Assembly: GCA_028065135.1 (NCBI GenBank) | Contig: JAPTWR010000195.1 | Location: 1 to 16,505 of the forward strand | DNA from: Acidithiobacillus sp. | GTDB lineage: Bacteria > Pseudomonadota > Gammaproteobacteria > Acidithiobacillales > Acidithiobacillaceae | Reading direction: 5' to 3' | Length of the DNA stretch: 16,505 bases | Shown: positions 2,863-16,453 of the stretch, piece after piece | Layout: every line of letters begins with the position of its first letter | Numbering within the stretch: position 1 is the first letter of the stretch | Position numbers and translations under genes: made by a program | Notes under the pieces: generated by a model | Database searches by the model: none | What the model saw: the letters and a program-made list of their open reading frames with translations, nothing else | Told to the model about the DNA's origin: nothing

Positions 2863-4047
2863 CTAGGGGACTACACCCGCCGTTGTCAGACCCTGAATCG
2901 GATAGACGATCTGTATGATCAGCCCCAGGAACTTCTGCAGATCGGTGATCGGCGCCGACGCCACATAAATCAGGTCATGATTCTGGATGGGGAAGGTCTG
3001 CGCGGCAAAGAGGGTGGCCGGATCGCTGAAATCAAAACGGAATACCACCGGCACTTCGCCATTGGCGGTGAGTTGCACCGGTTTCGGCCAGTGTGGCAGC
3101 AAAGACGGCTTCTCAAAGCGAAACACAAACACCGCCTTGGCATCCGCCTGATTGCCATTGAGCCCCCCCGCCTGCGCCAAGGCCTGGGCCAGGCTGATGC
3201 CAGAGGCCTGAAAGTCCACTTCCTTGGTTTCCTTGGCGGCGCCCATCACGGTCACCTGCAAGGGTTTATAGAGCGCCGTCAGCACATCGCCACCGCGCAA
3301 AGAAACGTCCTCATGGGGATTGCGGATGATCTCTTCCAGGGGCAATTGCAGCACCTTGCCGCTGCGGGACAACTGTATGGTCACCTTGTTGACCGGCTTG
3401 ACCACACCACCCGCCGCCGCTATGGCCTGTAGTACGCTGACCCCGCCCGGAATCATGGGCACCATGGTGCTGTCTTTCACGTTGCCCACCACCGTAATGC
3501 TCTGGGCATGATTCTTCACCAACCGTACCACCACCTGCGGATCGTGGGCCATATGAATCAGCCGATCGCGGATCTCGGCACCAATCTCGTTGAGGGTTTT
3601 GCCGGTACAAGGAATCTTGCCCGCAAAAGGCATCATGATGTCGCCATCGCTCCCCACCATCTGTGCAGGGATGGATGTCATCATGGACCCCGAAAGGCGA
3701 CTCATGGAAGCAGCCCCCGTCGCAAAGAGCATGGCGGGCGGCGCCTCCCAAATATACACCTGCAGCGTATCGCCGGGCCCGACGGCATAACGGAGGGGGT
3801 CGGGATTCATGAAATCCTTCAACGCATCCAGATGAGACTGACCAATCTCATCTTTCATGTAACGAGACATGGCGTAATTCACATCCACCAGTTGAATCCC
3901 CGCCAGGGCTTTGTTGTGTGCGACATCGTTCACACTGCCCGCGCGAGGCCCGGAATACGGCATGTAAGAGGCGCACCCGGTCATGCCCACCAATAAGGTG
4001 GCCATGACACCAGCGCGGATCATCCAGGTGTTTGCTTTTTTGTCCAA
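2863..4047 (-). CDS. Outer-membrane polysaccharide export lipoprotein (OPX; BexD/CtrA/Wza type)
   Basis: OPX proteins form the outer-membrane channel through which capsule polysaccharide leaves the cell, docking onto the KpsE-type partner. I choose the TTG at 4047, giving 394 residues, because GGAG lies 8 bases upstream and the resulting N-terminus is an ideal lipoprotein signal: MDKK, a hydrophobic stretch, then a lipobox MTGC with C25 as the lipidated residue. An ATG at 4023 is a possible alternative; the in-frame ATG at 4200 would place coding sequence through the divergent promoters and put the signal peptide inside the protein. The poly-export domain begins with YAVGPGDTLQVYIWEAP, two soluble SLBB-like repeats follow, and the C-terminus ends in a hydrophobic helix (FLGLIIQIVYPIQGL), as expected for the outer-membrane-spanning helix. 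Its size matches the BexD/CtrA class paired with ABC exporters. It is the first gene of the leftward operon. Confidence 0.9.
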   Translation of the reverse strand: MDKKANTWMIRAGVMATLLVGMTGCASYMPYSGPRAGSVNDVAHNKALAGIQLVDVNYAMSRYMKDEIGQSHLDALKDFMNPDPLRYAVGPGDTLQVYIWEAPPAMLFATGAASMSRLSGSMMTSIPAQMVGSDGDIMMPFAGKIPCTGKTLNEIGAEIRDRLIHMAHDPQVVVRLVKNHAQSITVVGNVKDSTMVPMIPGGVSVLQAIAAAGGVVKPVNKVTIQLSRSGKVLQLPLEEIIRNPHEDVSLRGGDVLTALYKPLQVTVMGAAKETKEVDFQASGISLAQALAQAGGLNGNQADAKAVFVFRFEKPSLLPHWPKPVQLTANGEVPVVFRFDFSDPATLFAAQTFPIQNHDLIYVASAPITDLQKFLGLIIQIVYPIQGLTTAGVVP

Positions 4048-4214
4048 ATCTATAACTCCGCATTTAATTTGGGACCGAGGATCCGAACCAAGGCGGACGC
4101 ATACCCCAGATGCCTGGTCGTAGAAACTTGTAATCCTCCGTCGACGTAGTGTACCATAAAAAAATGTTATAGTAGAACAGCGCATAACACTTAAATTCAA
4201 GGACGGCGAAAATC
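4048..4214. promoter_or_regulatory. Divergent promoter region between the OPX operon and manC
   Basis: These 167 bases separate two divergent operons and must hold both promoters. On the plus strand TGTTATAGT at 4165-4173 is an extended -10 (TGn plus TATAGT, five of six matches to TATAAT), about 40 bases before the manC ATG. On the minus strand TGGTACACT, the complement of 4149-4157, is a weaker extended -10 candidate for the OPX operon. The two candidates lie within 25 bases of each other, so the promoters may overlap and be controlled together. No convincing -35 is seen for either. The manC ribosome-binding site is AAGGA at 4199-4203, and GGAG serves the OPX gene on the other strand. Confidence 0.5.
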
Positions 4215-5701: not shown

Positions 5702-6820
5702 GTGCCGCAATCCATCTGGAACCGGGTCAAGAACCTCAACAAGCTGTTTATCTACGTGGTGCTGCTGCCGACGGGGTTATCCATCCTGTACTTCGGTCTC
5801 ATTGCTTCGCCGGTGTACATCAGCGAATCCGCCTTCGTTGTCTATAGCCCCAGCCAGCGCATCAGCAGTTCCGGCCTCGCCAGCCTGCTGAGCGGGCTGG
5901 GTGGCAGCAACTCCACCAGCGCGGCGGAAACCATCCATGCCTATGTGAAGTCCTGGGATGCCATGATGGCCCTCAACAAGGCCTACGATCTCAAAAAAGT
6001 CTACGGTAGCGAGAACATCGACATCTTCGACCGCTTCGGCGGTGTATTCTTCCCCCATAGCAGCTATGTCAAGCTCTTGCGCTATTACCAGTCCATGGTC
6101 ACCGACAATCTGAACAACACCAGCGGTATCACCAAGCTCAAAGTGCGTGCTTACGGCGCCGGAGATGCGCGTAAGATCAACGCCTTCCTGCTGCAAAAAA
6201 GCCAGGATATCGTCAATCGACTCAACAAAAGGGCAAGAGTCGAGGGGGTATACTACGCGCAGAAAGACGTCACTACCGCCGAGCAAAAATTGCGGGATGC
6301 CACCCTGGCGCTCGCCAATTACCGCAACCGCCACGGCGTTTTTAGCCCGCCCGCCCAATCGGCTTTGCAACTGGGCATGGTTTCCAAACTCCAGGACCAC
6401 CTCATCACCCAAAAAACCCAACTCGATGCCATCCGCGCGCACGCCCCCGGTAACCCGCAGATACCGGTGCTGAAAAGCTCCATAAAGGCGCTGCAAGGCG
6501 AGATCCTGGCGGAAAACGCCAAGGTCACCGGCTCCAAACAATCACTGGCCAGCAAAGACACCGAGTATGAGCGCCTGAACGTCAACCAGCTTCTCGCACA
6601 GAAATTGCTGGAAGCGGCGGTGACCTCCCTGGAGCAGGCGCGCCTTACGGCACAGAAGCAGGAACTGTATCTGGAGACCATCAGCAGGCCGAATCTGCCC
6701 GATGCGCCGCAGGAACCGAAGCGCTTTGAAGATGTTCTGGCGGTATTGCTGGTGTCGCTGATGGTCTGGGGCGTGCTGAGCATCCTGTTCGCAGGAATTC
6801 GAGAGCACCATGCCCGCTAA
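5702..6820 (+). CDS. kpsE: Capsule export inner-membrane co-polymerase protein (KpsE/BexC/CtrB, PCP-3)
   Basis: The 372-residue product has the two-helix layout of PCP-3 adaptors: a short cytoplasmic N-terminus, a membrane segment at about 15-35 (LFIYVVLLPTGLSILYFGLI), a long periplasmic region rich in predicted helix with coiled-coil character between about 180 and 325, and a second membrane segment at about 345-365. Before the last helix is the proline-rich RPNLPDAPQEPKRFEDV motif, a hallmark of the family. The protein bridges the ABC exporter in the inner membrane to the OPX channel. The start is GTG at 5702, supported by AGAGGA six bases upstream. Its last 11 bases overlap kpsM, so the two are probably translationally coupled. 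Confidence 0.94.
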   Translation: MPQSIWNRVKNLNKLFIYVVLLPTGLSILYFGLIASPVYISESAFVVYSPSQRISSSGLASLLSGLGGSNSTSAAETIHAYVKSWDAMMALNKAYDLKKVYGSENIDIFDRFGGVFFPHSSYVKLLRYYQSMVTDNLNNTSGITKLKVRAYGAGDARKINAFLLQKSQDIVNRLNKRARVEGVYYAQKDVTTAEQKLRDATLALANYRNRHGVFSPPAQSALQLGMVSKLQDHLITQKTQLDAIRAHAPGNPQIPVLKSSIKALQGEILAENAKVTGSKQSLASKDTEYERLNVNQLLAQKLLEAAVTSLEQARLTAQKQELYLETISRPNLPDAPQEPKRFEDVLAVLLVSLMVWGVLSILFAGIREHHAR

Positions 6821-7607
6821 TCATAACCTGACCGCATGGGATCAGTTGCGGCTACAGGGGCGGGTGATTTGGGCGCTCACCTTGCGCGAGACGGTGACAC
6901 GATTCGGACGTGAGGGGCTCGGCATGCTGTGGATGATTGGCGAACCGGCGCTGTTTGTGATCGGGGTGATGATCATCTTCTCGTTTATTGATTCTGGGTA
7001 TCCCTATGGCATCAGCCCTGCGGAGTGGCTCGCGGTGAGCTATCCCACTCTGCTGTTCTGGAGAAATGGTACCGGGAGGGTAACCGGGGCCATAGAGCAA
7101 AACCGATCCTTGCTGCACCATCAGCCCATCCGGCCCATGGATATTCTCTATGCGCGAATACTGCTGGAATTCACCAGCGGGATGGCGGTGTTCCTGTTTC
7201 TTTTTCCCATATTCATCGTCGTGGGGATATGTCATTTACCGAGCAATCTACTGATCATGGCGGTCGGCTATCTGCTGATCATCTGGTTTTCCTTTGGCTT
7301 TGTGCTGATTATGGCGGGGCTTGCCGAACTCAGTGAAACCATCGAAAAGACGTCCCACATCATCTTGTATTTGATGCTGCCGTTTTGCGGTGTTTTTGTT
7401 CCCACATTTCTGGTGCCGGAACCCTATCGAAGTTATTTGCTCTACTTTCCATTGATCGATGCGGTGGATTATTTCCATCATGGCTATTTTGGCCCGACGG
7501 TACCCAGTTACTATCATCTGGGTTACACCGTGCTCACGTTGTTGGGAATGACGTTGTTTGGCCTGGCTATTTCAGGGGTGGCCATCCGTCGGGTAAAGGT
7601 GGCGTGA
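6810..7607 (+). CDS. kpsM: Capsule polysaccharide ABC exporter, permease subunit
   Basis: This 265-residue ABC-2 permease has the exact size of KpsM/BexB/CtrC proteins. The N-terminus carries an amphipathic cytoplasmic helix (WALTLRETVTRFGREGLGMLWMIGEP) followed by about six hydrophobic segments, with the family pattern FWRNGTGRVTGAIEQNRSLLHHQPI in the loop after the second. It forms the membrane pore that moves the finished, lipid-linked chain across the inner membrane, driven by KpsT. The ATG lies within the end of kpsE. Unusually, kpsT does not follow directly but lies about 7.7 kb downstream, behind an AT-rich insert. Just beyond the TGA a diverged copy of the last 50 codons is present. 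Confidence 0.95.
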   Translation: MPANHNLTAWDQLRLQGRVIWALTLRETVTRFGREGLGMLWMIGEPALFVIGVMIIFSFIDSGYPYGISPAEWLAVSYPTLLFWRNGTGRVTGAIEQNRSLLHHQPIRPMDILYARILLEFTSGMAVFLFLFPIFIVVGICHLPSNLLIMAVGYLLIIWFSFGFVLIMAGLAELSETIEKTSHIILYLMLPFCGVFVPTFLVPEPYRSYLLYFPLIDAVDYFHHGYFGPTVPSYYHLGYTVLTLLGMTLFGLAISGVAIRRVKVA

Positions 7608-7631
7608 GCTAGTGATGAAAATAGACTCAGA

Positions 7632-7788
7632 CTGGTGGATTGGGTGGAATACTTCCATCACGGCTGTTTTAGTAGCCGCATGCTGACTTATTATTATCTT
7701 GACTATACTTTTGGTGGTGAATTTTGCTCTGCCCCTTTTTGGTCTGGCTATTTCCGGTGTGGCCATCAAATGCGTTCAGGCGGCGTGA
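7632..7788 (+). pseudogene. Remnant of a second kpsM 3' end, frameshifted
   Basis: About 157 bases align without gaps, at an offset of 180 bases, to the last 50 codons of the kpsM just upstream. The translated remnant reads LVDWVEYFHHGCF where kpsM has LIDAVDYFHHGYF, then continues TYYYLDYT against SYYHLGYT. After a T5 run at 7736-7740 the match jumps to another frame and reads GLAISGVAIKCVQAA then stop, where kpsM ends GLAISGVAIRRVKVA then stop. Removing one T from the run restores the frame. Many differences are at third codon positions, so it once evolved as a working coding sequence and is not a recent tandem duplication. No start or upstream portion is present. It probably marks a recombination junction in which an incoming cassette brought the tail of its own permease gene. 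Confidence 0.85.
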
Positions 7789-8106
7789 GCGCGGCTATGT
7801 TGCAATTCAGGAGCGCAATTGAAAGCCTGAGGTTTCATCTGGTTACGTATTATGTTGGGCATTAATCTTCAAAACATCATACGCATCATGTGCACTTGGG
7901 TGAATAACTTGAGCTATGTCATCATATATTGGTTCTTCGTTATTGTGTGTTAGTCATAGAGCAAGTGGTTCCACGCTGGTGTCTTGCCCTTACAAGCTAC
8001 AGCAAGACGTAAAGAGATAGTAGACATAGGTTTGTACGGCCCAAAAGCCGGGATCAATGATTATGCTTTGGCACTCATAATAACGAGGAGTCAAAAAGGA
8101 TTAAAT
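7789..8106 (+). other. Non-coding stretch at the left edge of the AT-rich insert
   Basis: No convincing gene is present in these 318 bases. Base composition falls from GC-rich to AT-rich here. The direct repeat GCAATT appears twice close together near 7804 and 7817. I see no good -35/-10 pair, though a promoter for the giant glycosyltransferase is expected. The only firm element is AAGGA at 8096-8100, six bases before the ATG at 8107. Confidence 0.5.
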
Positions 8107-11100
8107 ATGAACATAAAAGAAATTATTCGGTTAGATAATGAATATTTTATTGACGGTGTGTATAAATTTGTGCTTGGAAGAGAGCCTGATTTAATTGGGT
8201 TGGCGCACTATACCAATAAGCTAAATTCAAAAATTCCAAAAATTTTAATATTGTTGGATGTATTAACTTCAAAAGAAGCAGCGAGCAAGGTGAATACGAC
8301 CAATGCAATCGACTGTAAGCATCTTTTGGCAAAGTATAGAATATACAAAATCCTCCCATATAAAGAAGCTTTCATTAGAACTCTATTTAATGAATATATA
8401 ATAGATGATGAGTTATCTGCTAAATATGACTGGGGGAAGTTTTTAGAGAATAAAATTGAACAGCGTATAAAAACAAAAACAGTTGCCTTAAGCGTAACTA
8501 ATAAAAATAAGTCCATGATTAATGAGTTAATATTATCTAGCGGAAAGGGTAAAAGCTATCAAGAAAGAGCAAGGTATCACTTTCGTAATGGTGACAGAAA
8601 AGGTGCATTAAAAATTCTTAATACAGCATTAACCGAAGATGAAAATAGTCTGATAGACTTTGACTCTTTGGAGCAATTAATAGATGCAGGAGAGACATTA
8701 GATGCATACAGGATCACCACGGCCTGGTTGACGAACAAAGATTTTTATGGAAATTATAAGCTTGTTAAAATTGCGGCCACATTGGCCATACAATTAGAAA
8801 AAAATAAAGAAGGAATTCATCTGCTGCGTCGCTTAATAAATCTAGAGCGTGATAATATGGTTAATGATAATCCGGAAAAGCGGCTACGAATCCAAGACAT
8901 CTTCCAAAATATATTTTTTTGTTATTGGGATATGGCTAACTTAAAGGAAGCGCACAAAGTTCTCACAGAAATGGAATTAGCTGGCTGTCATTGCTCCGCG
9001 TTTGTATTAGAATGGAAATCATGCATCTCATTGGAAGTAATGAACTTTCGTTCATGCTTAAAGCACGCTTATGAGTATATGCGAGCTTTTCCTGAATACT
9101 CACAAACAGCCTATGGTCTAATACAAAAAGGATTATTAAGCCAACGAAAATTTATAGAGCTTAAATCTTTTATAGCTGAAAAAAGAATTCCTTTAGCCTT
9201 GGATCTTTTTGATGAAGGTCTAACAGAAACAGATCTATGTAGTTTTGCGAATTCATCGTTAAACAGAAAGCCATGCCACATATTCGATCTTACAAGTCTA
9301 ACTATAGCATTAGAGAGCGGAGCTTCTTTTGGCGGAATAGAGCGTACGTTAGTAGAATTGACATACAATATCATAAATAGTCGTGCAAAAGATGTTGTAT
9401 TTATAACATGGAAAAATATGATACCAGTTATTGTGAGACCAATCGATTTTATGGCATCCATATTTTCTGAACGAGCAGCTAGTGATGAACCTAATACTAT
9501 AAACACTAGTAAGCTTACTAAATTTGACACACTATACTCTCCTTTGCCAGGGGATATCATTGTGATCGCTGGATCTGTCTGGCACTATGATCCAAACTGC
9601 GATAAGCACAAGTACTTTACTAATTATGGGGCTAGTCCTATATACTTAGTTTATGATCTATTGCAAATATTTTTTCCGCAATTGGTTAGCGAAAAATGGT
9701 CTGCTCGATTTGAGGGTTGGGTTTCAAGAGTAATCAAGCTTTCCAGTATAATATTGGTAGACTCTAAATATGCATCTCGTGAAATACAGCAATATAGCCA
9801 CCTGAATAATATCGATATCAGTTCTAAGGAACTCGTAGAAATTGAGCTTGGTGATAATTTCATGCCAATGGCTTTGAGTCGAAAATATAAAAATTTAAAC
9901 ACGAATACTATAATAACTGATCGTCCTTATGTGCTTTATGTATCATCAATTTCTGCTCGAAAAAATCATCCATTCTTAGTTAATGCCTGGTCTCGCCTTG
10001 AATCAAAAATAGGAGATCAATGTCCAGAGCTTAAAATTGTTGGGTCTAAAGGTGACGGAACCAAAGCCCTAGATGATGTCCTAATAACCACAAATTTCGC
10101 TAATGGAAAAGTTTCCGTTTTGACCTCTGTTGATGATAATGGTTTGATAACTCTATATGATAGCTGCTTATTCTGCGTTTTCCCAAGTATTTGTGAAGGA
10201 TGGGGGCTACCAATCGCAGAGGCACTTTCTTATGGTAAGGTTTGTTTGGCATCAAACGCAACATCAATGCCCGAGGCTGGAGGCTCTCTTGCTGATTATT
10301 TTGATCATTATGATGAAGATGAATTTCTATCATTAGTACTGAAATACCTAGATGAAGATGAACGCACATTTAGGGAGGGTGAAATAAAGCAGGCTTATAA
10401 AAGACGTGATTGGTCCGCAACGTTGAAGCAAATATTTCATGCAACGGCTAGAATTAATAAAAATACAACACCCCTTGAATTTAAAGAGATAGAAGTGTGC
10501 GGTGGTGTGGTGATTGTCTGTGCGAGTCTCGGACAAAACTGTGGAATTGCCAGCTATTCTCTCTATGTTGTAAATGCTATAAGGGAAACTGGTCGGGAGT
10601 GTGTTATTGTCGATGATTCGAGTTCCCTTTTTGCTCTTCTAAATACAGGAAAATTTTTGCACGTTATAGTTCAACATGAGTATGGACTTTACGATGGTCT
10701 AATACCTCATCTCGGACAAGGGGAGGCTACCGGAACACTGATCAAGAATCTCAGCTATTGTAAGTCTACTTATAGCGATATAAAGATTTCGTTTGTCATG
10801 CATACAATTGATTCTAGTAACCCTCTGCTGGTTCAGAGAAACAATATTATTTTTAATTCTGATATTGATGTCTACACCCTTAATAGTAACGGCGCAAGGA
10901 AATTTAACTTAAATTACCTTGAACATGGTATTCCAAATGGTCACGAATTCCAAAATTTTCCCGAAAAGATTTCATCTTCCCAGAAAAAGACCACAATTGG
11001 TTGGTTTGGGTTCGTTTCGTCTATGAAGCGAATAGATAAGCTTCTTATTGATATTGCTCGCCTTAACTGTGAAATATTTGCTAATTTTGCTACTGAAGAG

Positions 11101-12093
11101 CAATCGGTCATTGACGATATTCGTTCACAGATTTCAATCCTTGGGTTGAAAGGAACGGTAACATTCGGTTTTGCCTCCGACCGTGCTATTCTTGATATGC
11201 TGGCTAGATGTGATTTTTGCTATTTTCCACAGGCAGATATTGGATATCACGCGACAAGTGGATCTGTGAGACTTGCAATGCTTTCCGAAACCCCTGTTTT
11301 AGTTAGTCCTCATGAGCAGTTTTTAGATTTAGCACGAGGCGTAATATTTGTTGAAGACGAAGATCTTGAAGCGTGTATAGAGAAATTGAGAGGGCGGGCA
11401 GTATACAATGCTACTGTTAAGAGACAGAGTGCATTTGTGCGATCAAACACTATAGAGCTTGTGTATAATAATATGCTTTCTGGCAAAAAGTTCTCGCCAG
11501 TTTTAAATAAACTAATCTGTGTGCGACAGCTTTTGATGCTGCCTAATGATGTATTTATACAAATAATATCTCATTTGGTATCAAATGAACTGTCATGTAT
11601 ATCTAGTGGAGGAGCAGAAGATGATGAATTATTAACGCGGATTAAAATACTAAAAGAGGTTTTCTGTAAAGAACATGGTATAACAGGTGATAATAATTCA
11701 GTTTATTTCCTTTACATGGGCGATCCGTTACCATCCTTAGAATGCTTGTCTGTAGACCAAATCTACTTGTCTGATCTGTTTGCATTGGTTGATGGCTACA
11801 TTTCTATACACTTATATAGATCTATGGCTGGTAGGAATCCTACTTTGGATGAACACAAGGCAGTCCATAGGTTGTGGTCACTTGATCCTTTGGCGTGTGT
11901 GTATTCATTAGCACAGGCTTTACATTATAAAGGGACTATTTGTGATAACCGTTCATTAGAATTGTTGGATAAGGCAAATAAGATTTGCAATTTACAACGG
12001 GCGACATCTGATGTAGGGATAACTGGTGACAACCTGGCTGCGTATGAGAGAACTAGACTGCGTAAAGAGTTTCCTGACTTTTTATTACCTTAG
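8107..12093 (+). CDS. Giant multidomain protein: DUF4214, helical repeats, two glycosyltransferase domains, DUF4214-like C-terminus
   Basis: The ATG at 8107 is chosen because AAGGA lies six bases upstream and the protein then opens with a DUF4214 motif (YKFVLGREPDLIGLAHYTNKL, about residues 17-37); the open frame extends further upstream without a good start. The length is 1328 residues. Residues 150-385 look like TPR-type helical repeats. A first GT4 domain spans about 391-785, with a GGIERTLVEL acceptor-side motif, SARKNHPFLV (R618, K619) and CEGWGLPIAEAL with E697 and E705 of the EX7E motif. A second GT-B-like domain spans about 799-1128; it opens with ASLGQNCGIASYS and has the donor-side segment GWFGFVSSMKRIDKLL, but GYHATSGSVRLAM stands where EX7E is expected. 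Near 1232-1278 is a second, degenerate DUF4214-like segment (YRSMAGRNPTLDEH). It is likely a cytoplasmic polymerase or two-step transferase for the glycan. Codon and base use are AT-rich, unlike the flanking export genes, indicating transfer. No membrane segment is evident. Confidence 0.88.
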   Translation: MNIKEIIRLDNEYFIDGVYKFVLGREPDLIGLAHYTNKLNSKIPKILILLDVLTSKEAASKVNTTNAIDCKHLLAKYRIYKILPYKEAFIRTLFNEYIIDDELSAKYDWGKFLENKIEQRIKTKTVALSVTNKNKSMINELILSSGKGKSYQERARYHFRNGDRKGALKILNTALTEDENSLIDFDSLEQLIDAGETLDAYRITTAWLTNKDFYGNYKLVKIAATLAIQLEKNKEGIHLLRRLINLERDNMVNDNPEKRLRIQDIFQNIFFCYWDMANLKEAHKVLTEMELAGCHCSAFVLEWKSCISLEVMNFRSCLKHAYEYMRAFPEYSQTAYGLIQKGLLSQRKFIELKSFIAEKRIPLALDLFDEGLTETDLCSFANSSLNRKPCHIFDLTSLTIALESGASFGGIERTLVELTYNIINSRAKDVVFITWKNMIPVIVRPIDFMASIFSERAASDEPNTINTSKLTKFDTLYSPLPGDIIVIAGSVWHYDPNCDKHKYFTNYGASPIYLVYDLLQIFFPQLVSEKWSARFEGWVSRVIKLSSIILVDSKYASREIQQYSHLNNIDISSKELVEIELGDNFMPMALSRKYKNLNTNTIITDRPYVLYVSSISARKNHPFLVNAWSRLESKIGDQCPELKIVGSKGDGTKALDDVLITTNFANGKVSVLTSVDDNGLITLYDSCLFCVFPSICEGWGLPIAEALSYGKVCLASNATSMPEAGGSLADYFDHYDEDEFLSLVLKYLDEDERTFREGEIKQAYKRRDWSATLKQIFHATARINKNTTPLEFKEIEVCGGVVIVCASLGQNCGIASYSLYVVNAIRETGRECVIVDDSSSLFALLNTGKFLHVIVQHEYGLYDGLIPHLGQGEATGTLIKNLSYCKSTYSDIKISFVMHTIDSSNPLLVQRNNIIFNSDIDVYTLNSNGARKFNLNYLEHGIPNGHEFQNFPEKISSSQKKTTIGWFGFVSSMKRIDKLLIDIARLNCEIFANFATEEQSVIDDIRSQISILGLKGTVTFGFASDRAILDMLARCDFCYFPQADIGYHATSGSVRLAMLSETPVLVSPHEQFLDLARGVIFVEDEDLEACIEKLRGRAVYNATVKRQSAFVRSNTIELVYNNMLSGKKFSPVLNKLICVRQLLMLPNDVFIQIISHLVSNELSCISSGGAEDDELLTRIKILKEVFCKEHGITGDNNSVYFLYMGDPLPSLECLSVDQIYLSDLFALVDGYISIHLYRSMAGRNPTLDEHKAVHRLWSLDPLACVYSLAQALHYKGTICDNRSLELLDKANKICNLQRATSDVGITGDNLAAYERTRLRKEFPDFLLP

Positions 12094-12356
12094 TACAAGG
12101 TTAACTAATCAGGGTCCCGAACTCCAAGCTTCTTTTTTATCTAAAGTCTCCCTAGTTATTGATCCATAAGGATACTATGGAACCTCTTGACCTGAGTATG
12201 ATGGATCACACGGCTAAGGAGAACCCAATTCGATTTATTCTCGGGGGGGGGGGGGCACGTATCACTGCACTCGAAGTTCGCCTGGACAAATATAGTCACA
12301 ATTCCATCGGTCCGCCTGTCTCATGTGGCTGCGTAAATCCGCATCTAAATCTTTGC
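12094..12356 (+). other. Decayed intergenic region with a short reading frame of unknown origin
   Basis: After the giant gene stops, no confident gene is visible for about 260 bases. A frame starting ATG at 12177 (AAGGA four bases upstream, rather close) reads MEPLDLSMMDHTAKENPIRF and runs through a 13-G tract and onward into the transposase remnant to a TAA at 12540-12542. The first 25-40 residues could be the broken start of a gene, but I recognise no family, and the C-terminal part of that frame is transposase debris. A functional product is unlikely as it stands. Confidence 0.35.
12243..12255 (+). repeat. Homopolymer tract of 13 G
   Basis: Thirteen consecutive G residues follow TTTATTCTC in otherwise AT-rich DNA. 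Tracts of this length slip readily during replication and underlie phase variation in other bacteria. Here it sits inside a short frame that begins at 12177. The exact length is also the kind of detail that sequencing miscounts. Confidence 0.95.
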
Positions 12357-12600: not shown

Positions 12601-13674
12601 ATGCCCATACCAATCGAAACAGTGGCGCGATACGTAAGAGATTTTCTTGGCGTTGATGTGGACTCCAAAAATCCGAAGATATCATATATTGCAGCCATAT
12701 CGGATAGTGTTGGAGATGCCAGAGATATCCTCCTAAAGCATCACATGAAAGAAATATTATACTCTCATACAGAACACTTTGGCCTTCATGAATATTATCC
12801 GCCATTTTTCCTTTTACCCCGTGGCAATAGCCCTATCCGAGACCATCTTGTATTTTATGAACCTTCTCTTGATGATCCAGTTAGTCAGATTTGTACTTGG
12901 GGACAGATTCAAGGTGACATATTTGATCGTATCAATTTTCTTTTAGGCCAAGGTGATAACTGCGGTCGTAAGCAATGGGAATGGTGCTTTATTTACAGGG
13001 TATTGGAGCGCTTAAATTTCTTGCGTCCAGGGAAAAGAGGCTTGGGTTTTGCCGTAGGCCAGGAACCGCTTCCATCGGCCTTTGTGGCTGCTGGTTGTGA
13101 TATACTCGCAACAGATGCACCTCCTGAGGCGTTGTCGGAGACAGGTTATCTGTCGTCTGCTGAATATTTGTCATGTATCGACCAGATCAACCTGCAAGGT
13201 TTATGTGATCCACAATTCCTTGAAGAGCATTTAGTTTTTCAGCCAGTAGATATGAATGATATTCCGAATGAAATGGACAATAGTTTTGATTATTGCTGGT
13301 CGTCTTGCGCATTCGAACACCTTGGATCGATAGAGGCAGGTTTATCATTTGTTCTGAATTCACTTAAGACATTGCGCCCTGGGGGGATTGCCATTCACAC
13401 TACAGAGTTCAATGTTAGTTCTAATACCTCAACGTTTGTATCTCCAGAGCTAAGTATTTTTACAATGGAACACATTGAAAACCTGATGGTAATGGCAATA
13501 AAGCGTGGATATGAAATTGAGCCCTTGAATTTTTTTCCTGGCTCAGCATCAGAGGATCTGTGTTATCAGACATTTCCTTACAGTTATAACGTGCCCAAGC
13601 TAGACATACAAGGCAATATTTGCACATCAATCGGGCTCGTCATTAGGAAAGTTGCTGAGGTGATCAATGTTTGA
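12601..13674 (+). CDS. Class I SAM-dependent methyltransferase
   Basis: This 357-residue protein has an N-terminal region of about 140 residues, containing DDPVSQICTWGQ and RKQWEWCFIYRVLERL, in front of a Rossmann-type methyltransferase core. Motif I is GLGFAVGQEPLPSAF (147-161), followed by AGCDILATDAP in which D172 would bind the SAM ribose. FDYCWSSCAFEHLGSIEAG and LRPGGIAIHTTEFN correspond to motifs II and III (strands 4 and 5). The GxGxEPLP variant of motif I is seen in methyltransferases that accompany glycosyltransferases in polysaccharide clusters, so modification of a sugar in the exported glycan is a reasonable inference; the acceptor is unknown. GGAG at 12588-12591 supports the ATG. 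The gene overlaps the next by 8 bases and is AT-rich like the giant glycosyltransferase gene. Confidence 0.85.
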   Translation: MPIPIETVARYVRDFLGVDVDSKNPKISYIAAISDSVGDARDILLKHHMKEILYSHTEHFGLHEYYPPFFLLPRGNSPIRDHLVFYEPSLDDPVSQICTWGQIQGDIFDRINFLLGQGDNCGRKQWEWCFIYRVLERLNFLRPGKRGLGFAVGQEPLPSAFVAAGCDILATDAPPEALSETGYLSSAEYLSCIDQINLQGLCDPQFLEEHLVFQPVDMNDIPNEMDNSFDYCWSSCAFEHLGSIEAGLSFVLNSLKTLRPGGIAIHTTEFNVSSNTSTFVSPELSIFTMEHIENLMVMAIKRGYEIEPLNFFPGSASEDLCYQTFPYSYNVPKLDIQGNICTSIGLVIRKVAEVINV

Positions 13675-14509
13675 TTCTTTTGAACTGATGAATTTTCCAG
13701 AATTTTTTGCTTTGAAATATTATATGCGGTTGCCAGCAAGTTGGATCACACCATCTTTACATACTTCTATTAACGTAAGCTATGATATTCCTTCTTTATC
13801 TAATCCTATATCGCAGGCATGTACCTTTTCTCAGTTTGGAGAGCCTATTTGTTGGCGCATCGCAGATGCACTTGGAGTGCTTCCTGTTAGGTATGCAAAA
13901 CGCAGCTATATGTGGGTATTTTCCTCAACTGAAGCACAGAACTACCTTGCATCTCTTGATGTATTTCTTCCTCTCCATCGATGGCATTGGGAAAGGTTTT
14001 TTATTTTTAGAGTTTCTGAGGAATTTGTTAATCCATCCGTCTTTATAGACTTCCCTGCTGTAGATCAGTTGGTTGACGCCTTGGATAGCAGTGGGTGCTC
14101 GGTAAACAAATTTACTTGCGGAGATTTTTATGCTCTTGCACCGTCAGACCTTATTGTAATCCGTATTACTCCTGTAATTGGGTCATTTGAAGCAGTTGAG
14201 GAAATAGTTGGTCGACTTGTTGAGTATGTTAATCCGGGTGGCGCCTTGGTTCTCATGTTAGATGTGAATATTTACGCCAATGAAGCTATTTTTAAGCCTG
14301 ATTTCTCTGTTCTCGGTAGATCTGAGATAGAACGACTGGCTCTCTTTATGATATCTTGTGGTCTAAGCTGTGTTCTTAATTTTCACACTGGTGATAACAT
14401 TCTTGACTATGCCTTCGATAATGCTCCGTATGGTCTCCCACACTTGCGTGCTTACATGAATGGTTGCGTGGTTGGGTCGTACGCTCTTTACGGTCGACGA
14501 TCTCTATAG
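13667..14509 (+). CDS. Degenerate paralogue of the upstream methyltransferase, apparently without a SAM site
   Basis: At 280 residues this protein can be aligned by eye to the preceding methyltransferase. NPISQACTFSQFGEP matches DPVSQICTWGQIQGD; HRWHWERFFIFRVSEEF matches RKQWEWCFIYRVLERL; EYVNPGGALVLMLDVNI matches KTLRPGGIAIHTTEFNV; and GLPHLRAYMNGCVVGSYAL matches NVPKLDIQGNICTSIGLVI. Where the upstream protein has the glycine-rich motif I and the ribose-binding acidic residue, this one reads NPSVFIDFPAVDQLV and NKFTCGDF, so SAM binding is unlikely. About 75 residues of the N-terminus and part of the centre are absent. The frame is intact and the start overlaps the partner's stop by 8 bases, so it appears to be translated with it. 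It may be a non-catalytic subunit, or an early stage of decay. I recognise no named family for it. Confidence 0.75.
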   Translation: MFDSFELMNFPEFFALKYYMRLPASWITPSLHTSINVSYDIPSLSNPISQACTFSQFGEPICWRIADALGVLPVRYAKRSYMWVFSSTEAQNYLASLDVFLPLHRWHWERFFIFRVSEEFVNPSVFIDFPAVDQLVDALDSSGCSVNKFTCGDFYALAPSDLIVIRITPVIGSFEAVEEIVGRLVEYVNPGGALVLMLDVNIYANEAIFKPDFSVLGRSEIERLALFMISCGLSCVLNFHTGDNILDYAFDNAPYGLPHLRAYMNGCVVGSYALYGRRSL

Positions 14510-15187
14510 TTAAGCTGTCTCAATAAATGTGTGCATATGGCGAACATGTTGACCACCATGTATTGAAGCTTTAATGATAGGATAAGGAAGTTTACGTAGA
14601 GGTCATCGCTTACTAGATGTGAATTTACTATCGGAAGACCTTGATGATCTGGCTTGGCTTAACATCTTTAGGATTGGTCTCATCCAACTATTTAGAAATT
14701 TAGCCGAATGTATTGCTCTTTAAAATTATTCTCTCGCAGTAAATTTATCAATGCGCCATTAGGCTACCCCATTTTTAAGAAGGGGTAAAACGTCGCTTGA
14801 CTTTTGGGCCATCAATGGGAAAAAAGCCAATGCCTTGCGATGTGGAAGCACCGTTTTCCCCGATCTCAAGAGCGGTAGCCGTAGGTCTAGAGTGGGGGGG
14901 CCACAGTATGTAATTAAATTATACAAGCTCTTAAAGTTGTGATAGTCTGTGCTCGCCGTAGGGCAGGGCGTAAACTGGATTTAGTACGTGATTTTGTTCG
15001 TATGACAGCCAAAGTTCGTAGATATCGAGATCGTCTTCGCGGGTACATTGTAAGCGTCTAACCGACCCTTGCGGGTTAGGGTCAATCAGGCTTATGCGGT
15101 TTTTTCCAGTTCCACAACAAAAGCTCGCAGAGCCGCTTATTGAACCAGGTGGGTAGCCGGTGGATGTGCGCAACTCTTACGACAGAT
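14510..15187. other. Gene-poor region at the right edge of the AT-rich insert
   Basis: I see no convincing gene in this stretch. A plus-strand frame near 14950-15060 reads RKLDLVRDFVRMTAKVRRYR before a stop at 15058-15060; it is basic and protein-like but unassigned and lacks a clear start. A minus-strand frame over 14931-15173 overlaps it and is equally unassigned. CTAACC at 15058-15063 pairs with GGTTAG at 15074-15079, but the nearest T run (15100-15105) is too distant for a standard terminator. TACCCC/GGGGTA near 14765-14786 forms another weak stem without a T tail. A G7 run lies at 14892-14898. Composition returns to GC-rich across this region, so the right junction of the insert probably lies here. 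Confidence 0.45.
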
Positions 15188-15209
15188 TGTATGCTTTGAC
15201 AAGCATACA
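15188..15209. promoter_or_regulatory. Nine-base inverted repeat enclosing a perfect TTGACA
   Basis: TGTATGCTT at 15188-15196 and AAGCATACA at 15201-15209 are perfect complements around a 4-base centre. The middle of the dyad reads TTGACA (15196-15201), a consensus -35 hexamer. A weak -10 candidate, TATCCA, begins at 15221 with 19-base spacing. The arrangement would suit a repressor operator lying on the kpsT promoter, but it could equally be an RNA hairpin if transcription starts further upstream. Confidence 0.55.
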
Positions 15210-15215
15210 CGCTGT

Positions 15216-15231
15216 GTCAGTATCCACTGAC
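15216..15231. repeat. Six-base inverted repeat
   Basis: GTCAGT (15216-15221) and ACTGAC (15226-15231) are perfect complements around the 4-base loop ATCC. It directly follows the larger dyad at 15188-15209 and overlaps the candidate -10 region. Confidence 0.6.
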
Positions 15232-15243
15232 GATCCCCTGCCA

Positions 15244-15265
15244 TCGCGATGATTCTGGATCGCGA
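15244..15265. repeat. Seven-base inverted repeat
   Basis: TCGCGAT (15244-15250) and ATCGCGA (15259-15265) are perfect complements around an 8-base spacer. Each arm also contains the self-complementary core TCGCGA. It is the third of four inverted repeats in the 140 bases before kpsT. Confidence 0.6.
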
Positions 15266-15282
15266 AGAGAGACCAAGGCAGA

Positions 15283-15325
15283 GGTGTTGTGGTATCTTTT
15301 CCGGGGCAACTGGAAAGGCAACACC
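15283..15325 (+). promoter_or_regulatory. Leader hairpin enclosing the kpsT ribosome-binding site
   Basis: GGTGTTG (15283-15289) pairs perfectly with CAACACC (15319-15325), and inside it CTTTTCC (15296-15302) pairs with GGAAAGG (15312-15318) with one G-U pair and a 9-base loop. The only interruption is a six-base bulge on the 5' side. GGAAAGG is also the likely Shine-Dalgarno sequence, nine bases before the ATG at 15328, so the folded leader would hide the ribosome-binding site. This suggests control of KpsT translation; no ligand or known riboswitch class is recognised. Confidence 0.6.
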
Positions 15326-15327
15326 CT

Positions 15328-15984
15328 ATGAACGACTTGCTTCTGGAAAACATCCATAAAACCTTCCCTATCCGCCATGGCCGGGACAAACAGGTGGTGC
15401 TGGATGACATCTCCTTGCGGGTTCGTCCCGGAGAGCGCTGGGGCATTGTGGGCCCCAATGGCGCGGGCAAGTCCACCATCATTCAGATCATCAGTGGATC
15501 TCTCACGCCCGATTCAGGCACCGTGCACCGGGGGATGAATGTTTCCTGGCCCATAGCCTTTGGCGGGGCATTCCACAGTAGTCTGACGGGGCGGGACAAT
15601 GCCCGGCTCATCGCCAGGGTGTACGGTGTGGACGTGGATGAGACCGTGGCAAGAGTCGAGGGTTTCGCGGAACTCGGGACCTATCTGGATGAGCCCGTCA
15701 AGACCTATTCCTCGGGCATGAATTCCCGCCTGAGCTTCGCCCTGAGTATGGCCATCGATTTCGATTGCTTTTTGGTGGACGAGGTCATCTCCGTGGGCGA
15801 CATCCGCTTTAATCGCAAGTGTGAGGAGGAACTGCGAAGCCGGGAGAACAAGGCCATGGTGTTGGTCTCTCACCATCTGGATATTATCCGCAACAACTGC
15901 GATCACGCGGCCTTTTTGCAGCATGGCAAGCTGCACTTTTTCGATAGCGTGGATGAGGCCATATCCGCTTATGAGGGGATGTAA
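15328..15984 (+). CDS. kpsT: Capsule polysaccharide ABC exporter, ATP-binding subunit
   Basis: This 218-residue ATPase has the length of KpsT/BexA/CtrD. Walker A is GPNGAGKST (42-50, K48), the ABC signature is the family-typical YSSGMNSRL (127-135), Walker B is CFLVDEVISVGD (D151, E152), and the switch histidine is H182 in VSHHLD. It powers export of the glycan through KpsM. The ATG at 15328 is preferred because GGAAAGG lies nine bases upstream; an in-frame GTG at 15289 would add 13 residues that do not belong to the family. It is GC-rich like kpsM but separated from it by the AT-rich insert, with its own structured leader, so it may be transcribed independently. Its end overlaps the next gene by 14 bases. 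Confidence 0.95.
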   Translation: MNDLLLENIHKTFPIRHGRDKQVVLDDISLRVRPGERWGIVGPNGAGKSTIIQIISGSLTPDSGTVHRGMNVSWPIAFGGAFHSSLTGRDNARLIARVYGVDVDETVARVEGFAELGTYLDEPVKTYSSGMNSRLSFALSMAIDFDCFLVDEVISVGDIRFNRKCEEELRSRENKAMVLVSHHLDIIRNNCDHAAFLQHGKLHFFDSVDEAISAYEGM

Positions 15985-16453
15985 GACAGGTTTTCCCGCC
16001 CTGTGGGACCATTGGTGGCCTGGGGCTGAGGCGAGAGAGGCGGATTTGCGCGCCTTGCCCGACGCCGAGTTCGTGGAAGCGATTTACCAGCGCTATCTGG
16101 GACGTGCCGCGGATGAGGAAGGCAAGGCCTACTATCTGCGCCTGCTGCGCGCGGGCCGGGGGCGTGTCCGCGTATTGAAGGATTTCAGGCGATCTGCCGA
16201 GGCCCGGCGCTATACCCAATACCGCCAGCGGCGCTTGGCTATCGCGGATTTTTTGCGCAAGGAACACCCCCCCCCTGTTGCCGACGGAGTTGCGCCGTCT
16301 GCCGCTGCCAAAACCTCGAATCGCACTGCTCGGCACCTGTCTTGCCGAGAGCTTGCTGCAGGTGGCCCTGGAGTTGGACTGGTCCATGCGGCATTACCTC
16401 ATGGATTCGGGCTTGCAGGAGGTGGATCGGCAGATAGTTGCCGATGCCTTTGA
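15971..16453 (+). CDS. DUF4214-domain protein, frame interrupted at a C9 tract
   Basis: The ATG at 15971 overlaps the end of kpsT and opens a frame of 160 residues. Residues 28-90 form a DUF4214 domain, with FVEAIYQRYLGRAADEEG followed by YYLRLLRAGRGRVRVLKDF and a final SAEARRY, close to the family pattern. After LRKEH the frame enters a C9 run at 16267-16275 and then continues as about 60 residues of Ala/Gly/Ser-rich sequence with no recognisable character before stopping at 16453. The neighbouring frame downstream of the run looks like genuine protein to the window edge, so the intact gene is probably a two-part fusion that needs one more C. It could be phase-variable, a pseudogene, or a sequencing miscount. 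DUF4214 domains occur near glycosyltransferase and export genes, but their role is not established. Confidence 0.7.
   Translation: MRGCKTGFPALWDHWWPGAEAREADLRALPDAEFVEAIYQRYLGRAADEEGKAYYLRLLRAGRGRVRVLKDFRRSAEARRYTQYRQRRLAIADFLRKEHPPPVADGVAPSAAAKTSNRTARHLSCRELAAGGPGVGLVHAALPHGFGLAGGGSADSCRCL
16267..16275 (+). repeat. Homopolymer tract of nine C
   Basis: Nine consecutive C residues fall exactly where the DUF4214 frame and the following protein-like frame part company. Ten Cs (or seven) would join them into one reading frame. Confidence 0.95.

What the first reader, a model, noticed from the sequence alone, without database searches (positions are those of the whole stretch)
8107..12093. 1328-residue double glycosyltransferase bracketed by DUF4214-like segments
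One chain combines a DUF4214 domain, a long helical-repeat region, a GT4 domain with an intact EX7E pair, a second GT-B-like domain without it, and a second degenerate DUF4214-like segment. Two unequal transferase domains in one protein suggest a polymerase adding alternating sugars, or a catalytic plus a binding domain. DUF4214 at both ends could act as a docking or chain-sensing module.
Basis: partly seen in the sequence, partly recalled or inferred. Interest (0 to 1): 0.7.

Follow-up and report, generated by a model that had tools for sequence, protein, structure and literature searches.

The report
Capsule sugar-chain enzyme with DUF4214
This is one very long bacterial enzyme from a capsule-making gene cluster that joins two sugar-transferase domains to helical modules; enzymes built on this general plan are known, but what its DUF4214 part and its second transferase domain do is untested.

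The parts
8107..12093 (+). 1328-aa multidomain glycosyltransferase ORF (P0001)
   Evidence: relatives
8093..8100 (+). AAAAAGGA, possible ribosome-binding site
   Evidence: read; inference
8131..8289 (+). DUF4214 domain, residues 9-61
   Evidence: PF13946 E 1.1e-8, above cut-off; same in P0003, E 4.5e-11; 36% identity over 56 residues to the N-terminus of a Novosphingobium DUF4214-GT4 protein
8548..9216 (+). probable TPR-like helical array, residues about 148-370
9277..10461 (+). first GT-B domain (GT4), residues 391-785
   Evidence: PF13692 E 1.8e-18, PF00534 E 2.2e-16, both on its C-terminal half
10195..10221 (+). EX7E pair E697...E705
   Evidence: invariant in the 4 sequences aligned
10495..11484 (+). 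second GT-B domain, residues about 797-1126, EX7E lost
   Evidence: fold of a predicted model; motifs
11485..12090 (+). helical C-terminal tail, residues 1127-1328
   Evidence: low-confidence helices; GDNxA near the end invariant in the 4 sequences aligned
11764..11856 (+). suggestive DUF4214-like stretch, residues 1220-1250
   Evidence: hhalign, 31-33 columns; not detected by Pfam
5702..6820 (+). KpsE/BexC/CtrB-type capsule export protein
   Evidence: TIGR01010 E 8.6e-95, 317.9 bits, below its cut-off of 437.5
6810..7607 (+). KpsM-like ABC-2 permease
   Evidence: PF01061 above cut-off; NF050053 E 2.6e-27, below its cut-off
7633..7790 (+). degraded second copy of the kpsM-like 3' end
   Evidence: alignment score 102; 200 shuffles reach at most 53
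12601..13674 (+). methyltransferase-like protein next to the GT
   Evidence: Methyltransf_11 E 9.6e-4, 20.2 bits, just under the cut-off of 21.2; matches in 7 of 72,556 plasmid records
13667..14509 (+). diverged paralogue of the methyltransferase-like protein
   Evidence: 24% identity, E 6e-10; no Pfam family
15289..15984 (+). KpsT/Wzt-like ABC ATPase
   Evidence: PF00005 E 2.6e-18; TagH/Wzt-type NCBIfam hits, below their cut-offs
15980..16453 (+). second DUF4214-bearing frame, directly after the ATPase
   Evidence: PF13946 E 2.4e-10, 40.7 bits
4215..5687 (+). mannose-1-phosphate guanylyltransferase / mannose-6-phosphate isomerase
2863..4200 (-). Wza-type polysaccharide export protein
   Evidence: PF02563

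Best explanation
The protein is a cytoplasmic polymerase, or at least a chain-extending transferase, of an ABC-transporter-dependent (KpsE/KpsM/KpsT, Wza type) capsule. Shown or well supported: the order DUF4214 - helical array - GT4 domain with EX7E - second GT-B domain without EX7E - helical tail, and the place in a capsule export locus. Inferred: the array is TPR-like; the GT4 domain adds one sugar, and the second GT-B domain adds the other through a non-EX7E active site (its motifs are conserved), so that one chain makes a disaccharide-type repeat. Also inferred: the DUF4214 and TPR-like parts hold the enzyme to partners (export complex, neighbouring methyltransferase) or to the growing chain and so set processivity, as is reported for the TPR domain of Cps3D/Cps7D.
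For: Locus: KpsE-, KpsM-, Wza-, ManC- and KpsT-type genes around it. Two GT-B domains. Order and lengths parallel Cps3D of Actinobacillus pleuropneumoniae: predicted N-terminal helical bundle 10-75, TPR 100-357, GT-B 358-736, GT-B 748-1136 (PMC11666461, passages); there TPR truncation hampers processive elongation. Dual- and triple-GT polymerases are known in ABC-dependent O-antigen systems (PMC11231755, passages). The second domain is conserved: 32.7-37.6% identity to P0004/P0012, against 31.0-32.7% for the first domain's N half and 47.3-51.9% for its C half; relatives of it occur in three other multi-GT proteins. A 577-aa DUF4214-GT4 protein lies directly after the kpsE-, kpsM- and kpsT-type genes of Novosphingobium PP1Y; BLASTP E 6e-35 to the GT4 part and 2e-8 to the DUF4214 part. 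A GT4 gene followed by a relative of the methyltransferase-like gene recurs in Rhizobium sp. 11515TR.
Confidence: 0.5

Rival explanations
1. Only the GT4 domain is catalytic; the second GT-B domain is a pseudo-enzyme that binds the acceptor or the growing chain, or serves as a scaffold.
For: Both EX7E positions are replaced: H,H,W,W and L,L,V,V in the 4 sequences of this architecture; the second position is L, V, I or T in all 7 sequences compared.
Against: Motifs are strongly conserved, including the Lys of FGF...K; in the 3 outgroup sequences the first position is acidic (E, D, E). Some GT-B enzymes are active without EX7E (recalled, no call).
Confidence: 0.33
2. The protein is not the polymerase but adds a linker, cap or side-chain residue(s); polymerisation is done by another enzyme of the locus.
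For: Only part of the locus is in the window, and a further GT4 gene is present at 1678-2853. Transition transferases that build a linker exist, one of them with a predicted TPR domain (PMC11666461, passages).
Against: Two GT-B modules plus a TPR-like array in one chain is the polymerase layout in the passages read.
Confidence: 0.15
3. Compatible with any of the above: the C-terminal tail carries degenerate DUF4214 repeats, so DUF4214 brackets the enzyme.
For: Profile of 14 short-form DUF4214s: P0012 tail 14.1 bits, P0004 tail 11.9; best of 600 shuffles 6.3. hhalign of the last repeat in 5 sequences 79%, or 60% with the N-terminal rows of this protein and P0003 left out; 100 column shuffles at most 9%. 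In Pararhizobium a two-GT gene whose second half matches this second domain is followed, overlapping by 4 bases, by a separate DUF4214 gene and then a TPR gene.
Against: This protein's own tail scores 4.2 bits; 1 of 200 of its own shuffles and 2 of 600 in all score higher. hhalign: 2% with its close relative alone, 12% for P0004/P0012 alone, 33% for the whole tail. Pfam none. Genuine members left out one by one score 52-99.5%. Only the first half of the domain aligns. The piece that gave 60-79% was anchored by eye. The Pararhizobium DUF4214 protein matches the tail family at 2%.
Confidence: 0.45

Closest known systems
Cps3D / Cps7D capsule polymerases (Actinobacillus pleuropneumoniae; PMC11666461, passages read)
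   Same: Order helical N-terminus, TPR array, GT-B, GT-B; similar length; ABC-transporter capsule
   Different: Their first GT-B is a glycerol-phosphate transferase (TagF-like family); here it is GT4. DUF4214 is not mentioned in the passages read, and Cps3D ends at about 1138, with its last GT-B. No sequence or structure comparison with Cps3D was made here
WP_148274759.1, Novosphingobium sp. PP1Y plasmid Lpl (L010 11956-13689)
   Same: N-terminal DUF4214 joined to a GT4 domain, after KpsE-, KpsM- and KpsT-type genes; E 2e-8 and 6e-35 to the two parts
   Different: 577 aa; no second GT-B domain and no tail. Its DUF4214 is borderline: 23.2 bits at a cut-off of 23.2, 27.1 bits
P0004, glycosyltransferase of Burkholderia cenocepacia (1436 aa)
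   Same: TPR, GT4, EX7E-less second GT-B and tail in the same order; 32% identity over 74%
   Different: Clear TPRs and no Pfam DUF4214 among the 25 families shown; longer tail
WbdA-type dual-GT polymerases of ABC-dependent O antigens (PMC11231755, passages read)
   Same: Two or three GT modules in one chain, one per linkage
   Different: DUF4214 is not mentioned in the passages read; WbdA is recruited by the coiled-coil terminator WbdD. No sequence comparison with WbdA was made here

Membership tests
DUF4214 (PF13946), N-terminal segment | Score above Pfam's curated cut-off | tested here: met
   35.5 bits against 23.2
DUF4214 (PF13946), C-terminal segment | Score above Pfam's curated cut-off | tested here: not met
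   no DUF4214 match at E<=10
DUF4214 (PF13946), C-terminal segment | Profile-profile relation to true members | tested here: inconclusive
   2% to 79% depending on the piece and rows used
GT4, first domain | Glycosyl transferase group 1 profile and EX7E | tested here: met
   E697/E705
GT4, second domain | GT-B fold like solved GT4 enzymes | tested here: met
GT4, second domain | Pfam group 1 profile and EX7E | tested here: not met
   no Pfam family; H1048/L1056 at the two positions
TPR array | TPR profile above cut-off in this protein | tested here: not met
   best TPR E 0.06, below cut-off; relatives P0004 and P0012 pass
ABC-transporter-dependent capsule locus | KpsE-, KpsM-, KpsT- and Wza-type genes together | tested here: met
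   NCBIfam equivalog cut-offs are not reached
ABC-transporter-dependent capsule locus | KpsC/KpsS Kdo-linker transferases | tested here: inconclusive
   not among the 9 window proteins scanned, but the locus runs off both ends and no genome is held
Capsule polymerase | Makes polymer from nucleotide sugars | not testable with these tools
   needs an assay

The most novel reading that the evidence does not exclude
DUF4214 in its short form is a general docking or chain-binding module of cytoplasmic capsule-assembly enzymes (GT4, FkbM and other methyltransferases, GT2), and the second GT-B domain founds a transferase family that works without EX7E, so that this chain is a self-contained two-sugar capsule polymerase.
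Probability: 0.25. Interest if true: 0.6.

Novelty: new variant of a known kind. Interest (0 to 1): 0.36.

Why it matters
DUF4214 is a domain of unknown function. Of the 4 papers in the searched library that name it, two suggest a surface-anchoring or extracellular role and two only list or correlate it. Its fusion to sugar- and methyl-transferases of capsule loci offers another, testable role. If the second GT-B domain is active, it is an EX7E-less transferase type that Pfam does not call, so such polymerases would be half annotated.

Tried and rejected
Genome context: no genome is held for the window. Both genome-contig scans (P0001; P0004) and one viral-contig scan returned no relative. tblastn of P0001 on plasmids gave 178 of 72,556 records, none with one place covering 80%; for P0004, 180 and none. 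The second half alone hit 1 of 72,556. DNA searches of the spacers 14510-15321 and 7608-8106 in plasmids found nothing. tblastn of the second DUF4214 frame found 1 record at E 0.2.

Pfam on short pieces of the C-terminal tails did not reveal DUF4214. The Pararhizobium DUF4214 protein did not match the tail family convincingly (2%). PDB sequence searches found no convincing relative for DUF4214 (best E 0.54) or for the second-half profile (best E 0.3). Cps3D did not appear in the rows shown for the two models; that is no evidence against the parallel, which rests on domain order taken from the paper.

Considered and rejected: chance ORF or broken gene for the GT itself (uninterrupted, 81% identical full-length relative).

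Papers: passages only of PMC11231755, PMC11666461, PMC5974469, PMC11970703, PMC12780176, PMC6034559, PMC12165300; search listings otherwise. The term DUF4214 is in 4 papers of the library; 'glycosyltransferase' together with 'DUF4214 domain' in 0. Most subscription papers are not in that library.

Full report
Observation. The window holds one open frame that gives 1328 aa from ATG 8107 to the stop ending at 12093. The frame itself opens at TTG 7984, but AAAAAGGA just before ATG 8107 favours 8107. It is not a chance ORF. Of the 6 proteins found among 5.8 billion (7,993 candidates scored), one is the window itself, one is 81% identical over the full length (P0003), one is a Burkholderia cenocepacia glycosyltransferase 32% identical over 74% (P0004), and the other 3 match only 16-30% of the query. 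A search with the second half of P0004 added P0012 (1618 aa, 39% identity over 97% of that half; 2 hits of 7,991 candidates, one of them P0004 itself). A search with the second-half alignment added P0013, an incomplete 628-aa relative at 89% (1 hit of 7,997).

Domains. Pfam sees DUF4214 at 9-61 (E 1.1e-8, 35.5 bits, cut-off 23.2) and the GT group 1 profiles within 600-751 (E 1.8e-18 and 2.2e-16); TPR only at E 0.06, below cut-off. The EX7E pair is E697/E705, invariant in the 4 sequences aligned, i.e. this protein and 3 relatives. No family is called on 785-1328 even at E 10.

C-terminal tail. I built a profile of 14 short-form DUF4214s: the N-termini of this protein and P0003, the second DUF4214 frame of the window, and 11 from plasmid records. 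P0012's tail scored 14.1 bits, P0004's 11.9, this protein's 4.2, P0003's and P0013's 3.8; of 600 shuffles none reached 11.9, 2 exceeded 4.2, one of them among the 200 of this protein's own tail. hhalign with the last repeat cut out by eye in 5 sequences: 79%, or 60% without the two N-terminal rows of this family; 100 column shuffles at most 9%; 10 TPR or helical control windows at most 0.8%; 12 genuine members left out one by one 52-99.5%. With the whole tail alignment the value is 33%, with P0004/P0012 alone 12%, with P0001/P0003 alone 2%. I call it suggestive, not shown. Context adds a little: in Pararhizobium a two-GT gene is followed by an overlapping DUF4214 gene and then a TPR gene, the same modules as separate proteins; that DUF4214 scores 22.3 bits by hmmscan, just under the cut-off, and just over it.

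Neighbourhood. ManC-, KpsE-, KpsM-, Wza- and KpsT-type genes surround it, with another GT4 gene on the minus strand and, at the left edge, a frame that reads like a polyketide ketosynthase (read from the translation, not tested). A Paraburkholderia plasmid locus of this kind also carries a type I polyketide synthase. GC is 0.366 for the GT gene and 0.42 and 0.408 for the next two, against 0.526-0.649 for the 7 other genes measured; third-position GC is 0.30, 0.37, 0.32 against 0.65-0.76. The block thus looks foreign and sits between the kpsM- and kpsT-like genes. Of the 6 annotated comparison loci with a permease gene, permease and ATPase genes are adjacent in 4 (Acidisoma, Paraburkholderia, Sphingobium TomTYG71, Novosphingobium); in Sphingobium YG1 and Cupriavidus no ATPase gene is listed beside the permease, so a split is not unique, though that gene table is incomplete. 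Right after the kpsM-like gene lies a degraded second copy of its 3' end (7633-7790; score 102, 200 shuffles at most 53), a likely recombination trace.

DUF4214 in other enzymes. Novosphingobium PP1Y: DUF4214-GT4, 577 aa, directly after the ATPase gene. Sphingobium TomTYG71: FkbM methyltransferase with DUF4214, on a plasmid with capsule export genes. Lichenihabitans: methyltransferase - 2 DUF4214 - GT2 in 1014 aa. These were found because they matched DUF4214; among 6 plasmids chosen for GT or KpsE similarity only 2 had any DUF4214 match.

Mechanism. The parallel is Cps3D/Cps7D (PMC11666461, passages): helical bundle, TPR, GT-B, GT-B. There the bundle is dispensable for elongation, and TPR truncation hampers processivity; in Cps1B, by contrast, the TPR domain was not needed for activity (PMC5974469, passages). 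By analogy (inference) DUF4214 takes the place of the bundle. The methyltransferase-like gene next door has relatives directly after a GT4 gene in Rhizobium 11515TR and beside the FkbM-DUF4214 gene in TomTYG71. It might modify or terminate chains, as methyl groups do in WbdD systems (PMC11231755, passages), but this is a guess.

Verdict. Real, well formed and mostly as described; a new arrangement of known parts. The C-terminal bracket is unproven, and the second domain's activity is the open and testable point.

Noticed in passing
7633-7790: Degraded second copy of the 3' end of the kpsM-like gene just downstream of it, at the edge of the low-GC block; likely recombination trace.
   Followed up: partly
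12243-12255: Run of 13 G in the spacer after the GT gene; 1000 composition shuffles of the window gave at most 12. Could be a contingency tract or an assembly fault.
   Followed up: partly
16267-16275: Run of 9 C in the DUF4214 frame after the ATPase gene; a second frame opens there, reads RIALLGTCLAESL and runs off the window, no Pfam hit. Variable tract, true break or sequencing error cannot be told apart.
   Followed up: partly
12601-14509: Two adjacent genes, a methyltransferase-like protein and a diverged paralogue (24% identity, E 6e-10); the second has no Pfam family.
   Followed up: partly
L011 3820-6864: Lichenihabitans protein: methyltransferase, two DUF4214, GT2 in one 1014-aa chain, recalling terminator-ruler-polymerase fusions.
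   Followed up: no
L003, L008, L016-L044: DUF4214 matches may have two shapes: the 21 highest-scoring (Sulfitobacter, Alloyangia, Rhizobium rhizoryzae records) start at profile position 1-3, those in or near sugar-enzyme genes at 14-22. Short matches starting at 24 also lie next to the full ones, so the split is not clean.
   Followed up: no
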